Shown here piece after piece: positions 6,892 through 24,290 of a stretch of 51,785 bases of DNA (within the stretch, counting starts at the first letter, position 1; each line of letters begins with the position of its first letter). Below the pieces are notes generated by a model, which searched no databases, had not been told where the DNA came from, and worked only from the letters and a program-made list of their open reading frames with translations. Both the position numbers and the translations under genes were made by a program. Source of the stretch: Bacillota bacterium (GTDB lineage: Bacteria > Bacillota > Limnochordia > Darwinibacteriales > Darwinibacteriaceae); the NCBI GenBank assembly GCA_012521335.1, contig JAAYMM010000070.1:1-51785 (forward strand). Reading direction: 5' to 3'.

Positions 6892-8682
<1,791 letters not shown>

Positions 8683-19659: not shown

Positions 19660-20240
19660 AGCCTTTTGTGAATCAGCTCGGAGAGGGGGCGCTTGGGCAC
19701 GTAGTGCACATCATCTTCACCGCGCCAGTAGCGGATATCGCCGTCTCGGCCAACACTGGTGAGCTCCACCCGTTCCCCCGGGGTGCCCAAGGCTGCCACC
19801 AGTTCGATCTTCAGCCCTTCAGGAATGCCCAGGATCTCAGCCAGGCGCGGCCGATCTACTGAGGCCAGCAGGCAGGCGCCATAGCCCAGTTCCCGCGCCC
19901 CCAGGATAATGCTCTGGGCGGCCAGCCCCAGGTCGATGAGGGCCATGCTGCTGTGCTCGCTGATGGAGGTATCGTTGAGGAACACGATGTACGCCGTGGG
20001 CCGCTCCGAGGGGCTCGGGCCCGGCCATTCGGTGAGGTAACCTGCCCACTTCAGGCAGGAAAAGACCTCGGGCAGCACTTCGGGATGGCGGACCAAAACG
20101 TACTTTAAGGGCTGTTTATTGGACGCAGAAGGAGCTAAGCGGGCAAGTTCTATGAGACTTTCCAATTCTGCCATGGTGGGGACAGGTTCCTGCCGAAATC
20201 TCCGGTAGCTCCGGGTGCTCTTCATCAGTTCCTTGAGCAT
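19656..20240 (-). CDS. nitroreductase family protein
   Basis: RSYRRFRQEPVP, ARLAPSASNKQPLKYVLV, DLGLAAQSIILGARELGYGACLLASVDR. Confidence 0.88.
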   Translation of the reverse strand: MLKELMKSTRSYRRFRQEPVPTMAELESLIELARLAPSASNKQPLKYVLVRHPEVLPEVFSCLKWAGYLTEWPGPSPSERPTAYIVFLNDTSISEHSSMALIDLGLAAQSIILGARELGYGACLLASVDRPRLAEILGIPEGLKIELVAALGTPGERVELTSVGRDGDIRYWRGEDDVHYVPKRPLSELIHKRL

Positions 20241-20328
20241 GGGTGACCTCCTGTTCTGGAATTGCTTGGGGGATTCTCTTCGCTAAGGGTGCGGTGTTCC
20301 CCTGCTGAGAGAAAACGATGGATAGGTG

Positions 20329-20357
20329 TTGCAAAAAGAATCAGAAAATAGTATAAT
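20329..20357 (+). promoter_or_regulatory. sigma70-type promoter (TTGCAA - 17 nt - TATAAT)
   Basis: -35 20329-20334, -10 20352-20357, exact 17-nt spacer. Confidence 0.85.
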
Positions 20358-20363
20358 ACAGAT

Positions 20364-20622
20364 GAAACATCAGAATCGCTGGGCCTTCCCGGCTGGGGCG
20401 CGGTCCCTGCCGCAGCACCGACTTCGTAGGGAAAGGGGGGAAGCAGTGCGCCGTTTGGCCCATTACGGTGCAGGGAGCCCAGAGAGGGGAACCAAAAGGC
20501 GCAGTGCAGGCAGCGCGGGCGTGCCGCAGTGAAGAAAAAAAAGAAAAGGCGATAGACCCGAACTAGAGCACGTCCGCCGTGAGGAAAAGGGCAGCGAAGG
20601 AGCCAGCAGGCTCCTTTGTCTC
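20364..20622 (+). ncRNA. candidate structured non-coding RNA or long 5' leader, family unidentified
   Basis: Follows the promoter above, no convincing ORF; nested pairings 20379-20384/20477-20482, 20405-20408/20472-20475, 20415-20420/20466-20471; 3' hairpin AAGGAGCC-AGCA-GGCTCCTT at 20597-20616. Confidence 0.5.
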
Positions 20623-20721
20623 TGCCTGGGCCAGACAGCGCAGGAAGTTGGGGAATTGTTTGGTATTAACTAAAGTAGAAGACCCAATGTCACTGAGCAA
20701 GTGGAAAGGCAGGCGAGCGTG

Positions 20722-21540
20722 ATGAAGAACCTTTTTGATCTTAACGGCCGGGTTGCTGTGGTTACCGGCGGCACAGGGGTTTTAGGCAGTGAGCTGGCCA
20801 AGGGCTTGTCCCAAGCCGGTGCGCGAGTGGTAGTGCTCGGCAGGGAAGCGCAGAGGCGAGATGCTGTGGTGGCGGAGATAACCAAGGACGGCGGAGAAGC
20901 CTGGGGGCTCGCCTGCGACGTGCTCGCTCCAGAGCAGGTGCGGGCGGCCAAAGAAGCTGTCTTGGAGAAGTACGGCAGAGTGGATATTCTCATCAACGGA
21001 GCGGGCGGCAACCGGCCGCCGGCCACCACCGGCTCTGATCTGTCGTTCTTTGATCTGCCAGTGGACGAGTTGGATCACGTGGTCAGGCTCAATTTCATGG
21101 GCACTCTGATTCCCAGCCAGATCTTCGGCAGGGTGTTTGCGGAGCAGCGAGAAGGGGTGATCCTGAACATTTCCTCCATGGCTGCCTACAGGCCCATGAC
21201 CAAGGTGGTGGGTTACGCCGCAGCCAAAGCGGCCGTGAGCAACTTTACCCAATGGCTGGCAGTGCACTTCTGCCAGAACTATTCTCCGAACATCCGGGTC
21301 AACGCCATTGCCCCCGGGTTCTTCCTCACCGAGCAGAACCGGTACCTGCTCACTGAGGAGACAACGGGTGAGCTAACGCCGCGGGGCCGCGCCATCCTAG
21401 ACCATACTCCCATGGGCCGCTTTGGCGAGCCCTGTGACCTGGTGGGTACGGTGATCTGGCTGGTAAGTGATGCCAGTAAATTCGTCACGGGAACGGTGAT
21501 CCCAGTGGATGGAGGCTTCTTGGCTTTTTCCGGCGTGTGA
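20722..21540 (+). CDS. SDR family oxidoreductase (D-mannonate oxidoreductase-like)
   Basis: GRVAVVTGGTGVLGSELAKGL, NGAGGN, YAAAKAAVSNFTQWLA, IRVNAIAPGFFLTEQNR; ATG 20722 preferred to GTG 20701. Confidence 0.85.
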   Translation: MKNLFDLNGRVAVVTGGTGVLGSELAKGLSQAGARVVVLGREAQRRDAVVAEITKDGGEAWGLACDVLAPEQVRAAKEAVLEKYGRVDILINGAGGNRPPATTGSDLSFFDLPVDELDHVVRLNFMGTLIPSQIFGRVFAEQREGVILNISSMAAYRPMTKVVGYAAAKAAVSNFTQWLAVHFCQNYSPNIRVNAIAPGFFLTEQNRYLLTEETTGELTPRGRAILDHTPMGRFGEPCDLVGTVIWLVSDASKFVTGTVIPVDGGFLAFSGV

Positions 21541-21566
21541 AAAGCGCAGAGAGTTGAGTCTCTACG

Positions 21567-21600
21567 CCCGCGCTGCCTCGGGAGGCGGCGCGGGTTTTTT
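21567..21600 (+). terminator. intrinsic terminator after the SDR gene
   Basis: CCCGCGC...GCCTC GG GAGGC...GCGCGGG TTTTTT. Confidence 0.85.
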
Positions 21601-21648
21601 CGGTTGGTGCTGGGAAAACTTAAGACGATACACCATTGGAACAGGAGG

Positions 21649-22056
21649 ATGGGCGTGGGCTGGAACGGATGGCCCTTTGAGCGGGTAGCGATCTTGTTTG
21701 CCTCCCTAGGCTTTCTCCTCATCTTTATTCAAGTGACCCTTTTTCACTACCGGCAGAACTTCAGGCATTGGGCCCAATGGGTGCCGGTGATTGCTTTGCC
21801 TGTGCTGGCCGTGGTCGGGTTGGCGGTCACCGCATCCAATGCAGCTTGGCTGCGTCAGGCATTTTTCTGGCTGTGCCTAGCCGATAGCGTGGGCGGTCTG
21901 TACGGGTTCTACCTGCACTTCACGGGCGTAGGGCAGCGGGTAGATGGCTACCGCCTCCAGAACTTCCTAGTGGGCCCGCCGGTGGTGCTGCCCTTAACCA
22001 TTTCCGCCTTGAGCCTGTTGGCTCTGCTGGCCGTGTACTGGAGTGCTGCCCTATGA
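21649..22056 (+). CDS. small multi-TM membrane protein, putative anchor of the GMC dehydrogenase complex
   Basis: ~4 TM segments; overlaps the next CDS by 4 nt; ATG 21649 used rather than the longer track start. Confidence 0.65.
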   Translation: MGVGWNGWPFERVAILFASLGFLLIFIQVTLFHYRQNFRHWAQWVPVIALPVLAVVGLAVTASNAAWLRQAFFWLCLADSVGGLYGFYLHFTGVGQRVDGYRLQNFLVGPPVVLPLTISALSLLALLAVYWSAAL

Positions 22057-22655
22057 TGAGGAGTGAAAGCCTTTATCCCGACTACGATGTCTTGGCGCTG
22101 CAGGATGAATGGGATGCCCACACCCGGCAGATCGTGGGCAAAAGGCTGGGACCCTTTCAGTTCAAACTGCTCACTCCAGAGCAGCAGGACCTGATTAAGG
22201 CCGTGGCGCGCCAGCTCGCCTATGAGCACCGCGAGGAGGTGCTCACCTGGATCGCCGCCCATGTGGATGAGCAGCTCCTGAGCCCCCTGGGTGAAGCCCA
22301 GCGCAGACCGGGAGTTCCGCCCCAGAAAGAACTGATCCTCTCGGGAATCGAGGCTTTGAACAGCTGGGCTAAGGAGAAGTTTTTCAAGGGTTTCCAGAGC
22401 ATCAGGCAAGAACAGCAGCTGGAATTCCTTCAGCTCCTGGAAGTGGGCGGCCTGCCCCAGGACCACGGCTGGACTGTGGAAAAGCAGAAGGAGCTGTTCA
22501 AGAAGCTAACGGGTCTCGTCATCTCCGCCCACTATTCCCATCCCTGGGTGTGGTCGGACATCGGCTATGGGGGCCCGGCCTATCCCCGCGGTTACGTCCG
22601 GGTGGAACTGGGCCTGACAGATCCTTGGGAGCCTAAACAGGTTCCAGGCAGCTGA
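22053..22655 (+). CDS. gluconate 2-dehydrogenase subunit 3-like protein
   Basis: C-terminal segment AHYSHPWVWSDIGYGGPAYPRGYVRVELG typical of the family; precedes a GMC flavoprotein. Confidence 0.82.
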   Translation: MMRSESLYPDYDVLALQDEWDAHTRQIVGKRLGPFQFKLLTPEQQDLIKAVARQLAYEHREEVLTWIAAHVDEQLLSPLGEAQRRPGVPPQKELILSGIEALNSWAKEKFFKGFQSIRQEQQLEFLQLLEVGGLPQDHGWTVEKQKELFKKLTGLVISAHYSHPWVWSDIGYGGPAYPRGYVRVELGLTDPWEPKQVPGS

Positions 22656-22667
22656 GGGGGAGCAGAA

Positions 22668-24290
22668 GTGGCAGAGAGGATTTCTGTGCAGCACAACTGC
22701 GATCATTACAACGCCGAGCGCTATCCCCATTTGAACAAGCGCAAGTTCGGCAACCAAGAAGTGGATGCGGTCATTGTGGGTCTGGGGGCTGCCGGAGGAG
22801 TTCTTCTCTATGAGTTGGCTCAGGCAGGCTTAGATGTGGTGGGCATCGAGGCAGGGCCGTTCTGGGACCCTCAGGCCGATTTTGCCAGCGACGAGCTGCA
22901 CGCCCAGTCCTTGGCCTGGAACGACACCCGCCTCTCCACGGGCAATGACGCCCTGGAGTTCGGAGCCAACAACTCTGGACGGGGAGTGGGTGGCGGCACT
23001 GTGCACTTCACAGGGGTGTTCTACCGCTTCCACGAAAGCGACTTCAGGGTGCGCACCCTGGATGGGGCAGGGGAGGATTGGCCCATCGACTACGCGGATC
23101 TCGCTCCTTATTACTCCAAAATCGAGCAGGAGATCAAGGTAAGTGGTCCCAAAGAGTTCCCGTGGGGCGCCTTCCACGGTCCTTATCCCTATCCCGAACG
23201 CAGTCCGATCAGCGGCAACGCGGAGATCTTCCGGCGGGGCTGTGCCGAGCTGGGCATCCGCAGCACGGTGGCCCCTTTAGCCATCCCATCGGCTCCCTTT
23301 GACGGGAGGCCGCCCTGCATCAACCGGGGCTTCTGCAATCAGGGATGTATGCCCAACGCCAAGTTTTCCACCCTGATTCACCATGTACCGAAGGCCATAG
23401 CCCAGGGAGCCGAGGTGCTCACTGACTGCATGGTGACCCGCATTCTTGTGGATAAACAGGGCAGGGTTACGGGTGTGGAGTTCAACCACGATGGCAAGTA
23501 CTATGAGCAGAAGGCGCAGGTGGTCATCGTTGCAGCCTTCGCCGTAGAGACCCCTCGGCTGCTTTTGAACTCAGCCTGCAGCCAGTTCCCCGATGGGCTC
23601 GCCAACAGCAGCGGTTTGGTGGGGAAGTATCTCATGACCCACAGCGGGCACGATGTGTACGCCCGCTTTGATCAGGAGATCCGGCTGTACAAAGGGACAC
23701 CTGTGCTGGCAGTGAGCCAGGATTTCTACGAGACTGACTTAAGCCGCGGGTTTGTCCGGGGCTATTCCCTCCATGCCCACGGCAGCAGACCCTTGGGCAT
23801 GGCGGTGAAAGCAGCGACGAATGCAGGGATCTGGGGTCAGAAGCTGCGGGAGATTATGCTGCACTGGAACTACTATGCCCGCATCACCCTGGTGGGAGAG
23901 GTTCTGCCGGACATTCAGAACTGCGTCACCTTGAGCGAAGAGAAGGATGAGTACGGGCTGCCCCGGGCCCAGGTACACTTTTCCTACGGAGCAAACGACC
24001 AAAAGCTCATTGCCCACGGCATCGATAAATGCAAAGAGATCCTGGCAGCGGCTGGGGGCAGGGACCCCTTTGTGGTGCCCGACAGTGCCCACCTGATGGG
24101 CGGATGCCGCATGGGCAAGGATCCGCAAAACTCAGTGGTGAACGAGTTCTGCCGCAGTCACGACATACCGAACCTTTACATCTGCGATGCCAGTGTGTTT
24201 GTCACCTCAGGGGCAGCCAACCCCACAGAAACTGTGATGGCCCTCGCAGCGCGTACCGCGGGGCGCATCATCAGGGAAGGGAAGAAGTAA
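22668..24290 (+). CDS. GMC family FAD-dependent dehydrogenase (gluconate 2-dehydrogenase large subunit-like)
   Basis: VDAVIVGLGAAGGVLLYELAQAGLDVVGIEAG FAD fold; DSAHLMGGCRMG and NLYICDASVFVTSGAANPTETVMALAART C-terminal GMC motifs. Confidence 0.9.
   Translation: MAERISVQHNCDHYNAERYPHLNKRKFGNQEVDAVIVGLGAAGGVLLYELAQAGLDVVGIEAGPFWDPQADFASDELHAQSLAWNDTRLSTGNDALEFGANNSGRGVGGGTVHFTGVFYRFHESDFRVRTLDGAGEDWPIDYADLAPYYSKIEQEIKVSGPKEFPWGAFHGPYPYPERSPISGNAEIFRRGCAELGIRSTVAPLAIPSAPFDGRPPCINRGFCNQGCMPNAKFSTLIHHVPKAIAQGAEVLTDCMVTRILVDKQGRVTGVEFNHDGKYYEQKAQVVIVAAFAVETPRLLLNSACSQFPDGLANSSGLVGKYLMTHSGHDVYARFDQEIRLYKGTPVLAVSQDFYETDLSRGFVRGYSLHAHGSRPLGMAVKAATNAGIWGQKLREIMLHWNYYARITLVGEVLPDIQNCVTLSEEKDEYGLPRAQVHFSYGANDQKLIAHGIDKCKEILAAAGGRDPFVVPDSAHLMGGCRMGKDPQNSVVNEFCRSHDIPNLYICDASVFVTSGAANPTETVMALAARTAGRIIREGKK

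What the first reader, a model, noticed from the sequence alone, without database searches (positions are those of the whole stretch)
20329..20622. Unidentified long structured RNA behind a near-consensus sigma70 promoter
Seen: TTGCAA-17-TATAAT at 20329-20357, then ~360 nt before the SDR start (20722) with no plausible ORF. The 5' part folds on paper as a nested stem: CTGGGC 20379-20384 with GCCCAG 20477-20482, CCCT 20405-20408 with AGGG 20472-20475, GCACCG 20415-20420 with CGGTGC 20466-20471. An 8-bp tetraloop hairpin plus a short U-rich run closes the region (20597-20622). Fragments such as GGGGAACCAAAA and GACCCGAAC recall pieces of ydaO/yuaA (c-di-AMP) leaders, but I cannot find the canonical GACAGCTAAC core. 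I also do not recognise 6S, tmRNA, SRP, RNase P, T-box, TPP, FMN, SAM or cobalamin signatures. It is either a divergent member of a known class or a new leader/sRNA.
Basis: partly seen in the sequence, partly recalled or inferred. Interest (0 to 1): 0.66.

Follow-up and report, generated by a model that had tools for sequence, protein, structure and literature searches.

The report
Small RNA matching a distant mRNA
The unexplained RNA is a real small RNA found only in one family of uncultured Bacillota; a loop near its end is the exact complement of the first bases of the messenger for a small exported protein elsewhere in the genome, and when one sequence changes in a relative the other changes with it, so the RNA very probably controls that gene by base pairing.

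Summary
The nested 5' stem is not supported. The functional part lies further 3': a hairpin (20515-20524 / 20568-20577) presenting an A-rich loop with GAUAGACCC (20551-20559), then a terminator-type hairpin (20594-20619). This module recurs in 13 of 23 genomes of the family and nowhere else found. The stem covaries (8/8 pairs change on both sides; score 0.424, 0/500 shuffles). Downstream genes differ and no ORF is shared, so it is a stand-alone sRNA, not a leader. Searching eight genomes for the loop's complement gave one recurrent gene: a 150-residue exported protein behind metK, with the site at the mRNA 5' end, between -10 box and Shine-Dalgarno. All 11 genomes where both were found keep 11-13 contiguous Watson-Crick pairs. 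One species' changed loop (GCGAUAGGCCC) predicted its target (GGGCCUAUCGC) before it was read; this was confirmed. [quoted passage not shown] Whether it stabilises or represses is undetermined; expression is untested. In the window a neighbouring gene is deleted and the sRNA now uses that gene's promoter.

The parts
20329..20357 (+). sigma70/sigmaA promoter TTGCAA-17-TATAAT; homologous to the promoter in front of the unknown ~220-aa gene in G001/G003, which is deleted here
20364..20625 (+). approximate sRNA transcript (ends inferred from promoter and terminator-type hairpin, not measured)
   Evidence: inference for the ends
20428..20443 (+). purine-rich, SD-like tract AGGGAAAGGGGGGAAG, present in some form in every copy; role unknown
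20515..20524 (+). 5' arm of the conserved covarying stem (GCGGGCGUGC)
20548..20560 (+). seed: GGCGAUAGACCCG, complementary over 13 nt to the 5' end of the target mRNA at G000:C71 (about 6935-6948); invariant core GAUAGACCC 20551-20559
20568..20577 (+). 3' arm of the conserved covarying stem (GCACGUCCGC)
20594..20619 (+). terminator-type hairpin GCGAAGGAGCC-AGCA-GGCUCCUUUGU, followed by a weak U-run UCUCUG

Best explanation
The element is a stand-alone, trans-acting small regulatory RNA of about 260 nt. Its 3' module is a stem with a long A-rich loop that presents GAUAGACCC, followed by a terminator-type hairpin. The loop pairs over 11-13 contiguous bases with the first bases of one mRNA encoded elsewhere in the genome. 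That mRNA is the first cistron behind metK and encodes a 150-residue protein with a signal-peptide-like start. The site runs from about +1 of the mRNA to a few nt before the Shine-Dalgarno sequence. Supported by sequence evidence here: the family-wide RNA, the covarying stem, the conserved and co-varying complementarity, and independence from the downstream gene. Inferred: that the RNA is transcribed, that pairing happens in cells, and its effect. My choice for the effect is stabilisation by masking the mRNA 5' end with the SD left free, as for RoxS on yflS (about 50%); repression by a clash with the 30S subunit is nearly as likely (about 45%).
For: 13 of 23 family genomes carry the RNA. Stem: all 8 modelled pairs change on both sides, covariation score 0.424 against 0.206 shuffled, 0/500, and at most 0.171 when slid; duplex around the motif better than shuffled flanks in 13/13 genomes, p <= 0.033. 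Own consensus promoter in 10 of 13 copies. Downstream genes differ between clades and several have own -10-like boxes. Complement search: in 7 of 8 genomes the hit at a start region is the same orthologous gene, 26-27 nt before the start codon. Prediction noted and confirmed: G005 loop GCGAUAGGCCC, target GGGCCTATCGC. All 11 genomes with both partners keep 11-13 contiguous Watson-Crick pairs, matched mean 11.9 against 9.6 mismatched, permutation p 7e-5. 4 of 12 pair positions change on both sides, one with C-G, G-C and A-U states in three genera; score 0.200 against 0.072, 0/500. Loop prefers its target over 50 other start regions in 10 of 11 genomes. Of six target orthologues in genomes with no detected sRNA, five lack the site. 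Precedent for pairing at an extreme mRNA 5' end: RoxS-yflS (PMC5419742).
Against: No expression data. The species are related, so shuffle and permutation figures overstate independence; about four independent matched changes carry the case. The helix contains no G-U pair, so sequence alone cannot fully exclude a shared DNA site. G022 keeps the target site but no sRNA was found (assembly 88% complete, about 330 contigs). G014 and G021 have the sRNA but no target was found. G001/G003 lack a visible promoter for the RNA. The sign of regulation is undetermined, and RNase J was not looked for.
Confidence: 0.85

Rival explanations
1. Cis-acting leader (riboswitch or attenuator) of the downstream gene, here the D-mannonate oxidoreductase-like SDR, ending in a regulated terminator.
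For: In the copies with context the next gene lies on the same strand, and a terminator-type hairpin separates it from the RNA.
Against: The first downstream gene differs (SDR, aldo-keto reductase, UPF0597-like, isomerase-like and others), several with own -10-like boxes. Pairing of the 5' domain with the terminator arm shows no excess and no co-evolution (p 0.65). It does not explain the matched changes with a distant mRNA.
Confidence: 0.06
2. The shared string is the binding site of a DNA-binding regulator that occurs both at the start of the target gene and inside the RNA gene, so the two sites evolve together through the protein.
For: At the target the site lies just after the -10 box, a usual operator position. 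Complementarity on paper equals identity of double-stranded DNA, and no G-U pair occurs in the helix.
Against: The string is not a palindrome. In the RNA gene it lies roughly 80-190 bp downstream of the promoter, always in the loop of a stem that covaries as RNA.
Confidence: 0.07
3. Remnant of the 3' end of a decayed protein-coding gene.
For: In G001 and G003 the ORF of the neighbouring unknown gene runs on into the RNA, and that gene is deleted in the window.
Against: Matches of that protein to other genera end at about residue 220, before the RNA; in G006, G013 and G019 the gene stops and a consensus promoter for the RNA follows. The window copy keeps a 10-bp stem, the exact loop core and 13 nt of complementarity to its own target, including an extra G-C pair not seen in the others.
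Confidence: 0.02

Closest known systems
RoxS (RsaE) sRNA and its yflS target in Bacillus subtilis (PMC5419742)
   Same: Bacillota sRNA; [quoted passage not shown] SD left free
   Different: No sequence relation was found by Rfam; RoxS uses C-rich regions and has several targets, whereas here one A-rich loop with GAUAGACCC and one evident target; leader about 28 nt instead of 38-39; effect not measured
ydaO/yuaA c-di-AMP riboswitch
   Same: Short strings such as GACCCGAAC only
   Different: No Rfam match, no conserved downstream gene, different architecture
6S RNA and SRP RNA
   Same: Single-copy non-coding RNA with own promoter
   Different: Rfam-matched 6S and small SRP RNAs lie elsewhere in the same genome (G000:C42 and G000:C9)

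Membership tests
trans-encoded base-pairing sRNA | Own transcription unit: promoter and terminator, no conserved ORF | tested here: met
   Consensus promoter in 10 of 13 copies, terminator-type hairpin in all; 5' tract followed by no shared start codon or reading frame; not visible promoter in G001/G003 and gap in G016
trans-encoded base-pairing sRNA | Conserved secondary structure | tested here: met
trans-encoded base-pairing sRNA | Conserved complementarity to an mRNA from another locus | tested here: met
   11 of 11 genomes with both partners, matched changes
trans-encoded base-pairing sRNA | Expressed and changes target level or translation | not testable with these tools
   No RNA data for this lineage
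RoxS/RsaE | Match to a described RNA family of that name in Rfam | tested here: not met
   No Rfam match in the window or in six relatives
[quoted passage not shown]
   Position fits the predicted start (6-7 nt after the -10 box); transcription start and RNase J effect not testable here
ydaO c-di-AMP riboswitch | Rfam model match and leader position before a conserved type of gene | tested here: not met
6S RNA | Match to RF00013 | tested here: not met
   The genome's only RF00013 match is at C42:682-861

The most novel reading that the evidence does not exclude
A lineage-specific sRNA whose one evident target is read at the first nucleotides of its mRNA, so that the pairing site makes up nearly all of the leader ahead of the Shine-Dalgarno.
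Probability: 0.4. Interest if true: 0.75.

Novelty: new member of a known kind. Interest (0 to 1): 0.66.

Why it matters
It gives an uncultured family of Bacillota a new sRNA together with a specific target, found only by comparing genomes and with a prediction that came true. sRNA-target pairs are seldom supported by matched changes on both sides. It adds a likely case of sRNA pairing at the extreme mRNA 5' end, a mechanism described for RoxS. It also suggests how an sRNA can outlive deletions of its promoter or its neighbour by using another transcription start.

Tried and rejected
Known class: Rfam at gathering and relaxed thresholds, window and six relatives: none. Pseudogene idea (suggested): rejected once other members of the family showed the RNA behind its own promoter. 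Nested 5' stem and a hairpin around the G-run: no better than shuffles in most copies. Antiterminator pairing of the 5' domain with the terminator arm: no excess and no co-evolution (matched mean -16.2 against -16.4 kcal/mol, permutation p 0.65). A loop-loop contact between GGG and ACCC was considered only by eye. Small ORF after the SD-like tract: none shared (by eye). AlphaFold of the neighbouring unknown protein was useless (pLDDT 40). The target protein has no Pfam, NCBIfam or convincing PDB relative. Literature: the loop string occurs in no relevant held paper.

Full report
What is in the window. The promoter TTGCAA-17-TATAAT at 20329-20357 is real and the only promoter-like site in 20200-21620. 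Rfam has no match anywhere in the window, nor in six loci that hold relatives of the RNA. The RNA as a whole is not unusually stable (z -1.0).

Relatives. A DNA search of 61 genomes found two close relatives of the region. Their flanks led to the same kind of RNA in further members of the family. Covariance models built on the 3' part found it in 13 of 23 family genomes: G000, 001, 003, 004, 005, 006, 013, 014, 016, 018, 019, 020 and 021 (G014 is a weak hit and was accepted because its stem, loop, promoter and position fit). Hits in other families are terminators without the loop. NCBI taxonomy lists the one looked up as unclassified Bacillota.

Anatomy. The order is: promoter (TTGACA or TTGCAW, 17 nt, TANAAT; not visible in G001 and G003, assembly gap in G016), a variable 5' domain with a purine-rich SD-like tract, a hairpin whose long A-rich loop holds GAUAGACCC, and a terminator-type hairpin. 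The loop core is exact in 11 of 13 copies; G005 has GAUAGGCCC and G014 ACUAGACCC. The stem differs in sequence between genera but is always formed. On the 12-genome alignment every one of its 8 modelled pairs has changes on both sides, and the covariation score is 0.424 against 0.206 in shuffles (0/500) and at most 0.171 when slid. Independently of that alignment, the duplex around the motif beats shuffled flanks in each of 13 genomes (p <= 0.033, mean z -3.25).

Not a leader, not a remnant. The upstream neighbours are largely constant (aminotransferase, small membrane protein, kinase-like protein, nitroreductase; names read by eye), whereas the first gene after the RNA differs between clades and often carries a -10-like box after the terminator. 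Five genomes have a gene for an unknown protein of about 220 residues just before the RNA. A piece of it remains in G018 and none was seen in G000, 004, 005, 014 and 020, while the RNA stays. In G006, G013 and G019 the RNA has its own promoter after that gene. In G001 and G003 the ORF runs into the RNA. In the window, G004 and G005 the gene is gone, and the promoter that stands before the gene in G001 and G003 now stands directly before the RNA. The junction in the window is at about 20375-20382 (inference).

The target. I searched eight genomes for the exact complement of the loop core, GGGTCTATC. It is rare: 6 places in the window genome, one of them the sRNA gene itself. Among the 50 loci examined, one orthologous gene recurs in seven genomes with the site at a fixed place, 26-27 nt before the start codon. 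In the window genome it reads TTGACA-17-TATAAT-GAACCC-GGGTCTATCGCC-GTAAGGAGG-AAGACA-ATG. So the site begins where transcription should start and ends just before the Shine-Dalgarno. The gene lies behind metK (named by eye) and encodes a 150-residue protein with a signal-peptide-like N-terminus. Two further proteins with signal-like starts follow, and no family matches any of the three.

Test of the pairing. From the loops I wrote down what the targets of the deviating species should look like (note), then fetched the orthologues. G005, loop UGCGAUAGGCCC, has AGGGCCTATCGCA. G006, loop AAAGAUAGACCCUG, has CAGGGTCTATCTT. In all 11 genomes where both partners were found, 11-13 contiguous Watson-Crick pairs are kept; matched partners give 11.9 on average against 9.6 for mismatched ones (permutation p 7e-5). 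Of 12 pair positions, 4 have changes on both sides; the one before GAUAG is C-G in the window's genus, G-C in a second and A-U in a third. The loop prefers its target to 50 other start regions in 10 of 11 genomes (in G016 it ranks third). Of six target orthologues from genomes with no detected sRNA, five lack the site (G002, 007, 010, 011, 015). The sixth, G022, keeps it; its assembly is 88% complete in about 330 contigs, so its sRNA may be missing from the assembly. Related genomes are not independent, so these p values are guides; about four independent matched changes carry the argument.

Mechanism. Shown by sequence: a conserved RNA, a covarying stem, matched change with one mRNA. Inferred: transcription, pairing in the cell, effect. 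The site is at the very 5' end of the mRNA and leaves the Shine-Dalgarno free. This is the geometry of RoxS on yflS in Bacillus subtilis, where pairing at the extreme 5' end blocks RNase J1 and raises ribosome binding (PMC5419742). The leader here is about 10 nt shorter, so a clash with the 30S subunit, hence repression, is almost as likely. A shared DNA-binding site is the rival that sequence alone cannot fully exclude, since the helix contains no G-U pair; its place in the loop of a covarying RNA stem speaks against it.

Verdict. A new sRNA family, restricted to one family of uncultured Bacillota as far as searched, with one well-supported mRNA target. It is a new member of a known kind (trans-acting base-pairing sRNA) and not a member of any described RNA family tested here.

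Noticed in passing
L086 5152-5994 (-), L087 2871-3539 (+), L093 4979-5782 (-): Unknown helical-looking protein of about 220 residues encoded just before the RNA in five genomes, without Pfam or NCBIfam match; deleted in the window genome. All five genomes that have it also have the RNA.
   Followed up: partly
window 20722-21540 (+): Downstream SDR gene is a D-mannonate oxidoreductase-type SDR (NF006132, 379.9 bits against a cut-off of 281), followed by a strong terminator-like hairpin at 21566-21595.
   Followed up: partly
window 20626-20720 (+) and homologous stretches in L003, L004, L035: Block CGCAGGAAGT..GGA.TTGTTTGG.ATTA between the sRNA terminator and the SDR start is partly conserved in the genus; perhaps the SDR promoter or an operator.
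   Followed up: no
L183 2967-6132 (+); L184 2266-5863 (+): The target operon: three proteins with signal-like starts (about 150, 230 and 680-820 residues) behind metK, no known family; function unknown, probably cell envelope.
   Followed up: partly
G000 whole genome: No RNase P RNA of type B was found in the 95%-complete genome; type A was not tested.
   Followed up: no
window 21604-24290 (+): Genes after the SDR look by eye like a membrane protein, a small subunit and a large GMC-type (gluconate 2-dehydrogenase-like) oxidoreductase; the order is kept in G001, G003 and G004.
   Followed up: no
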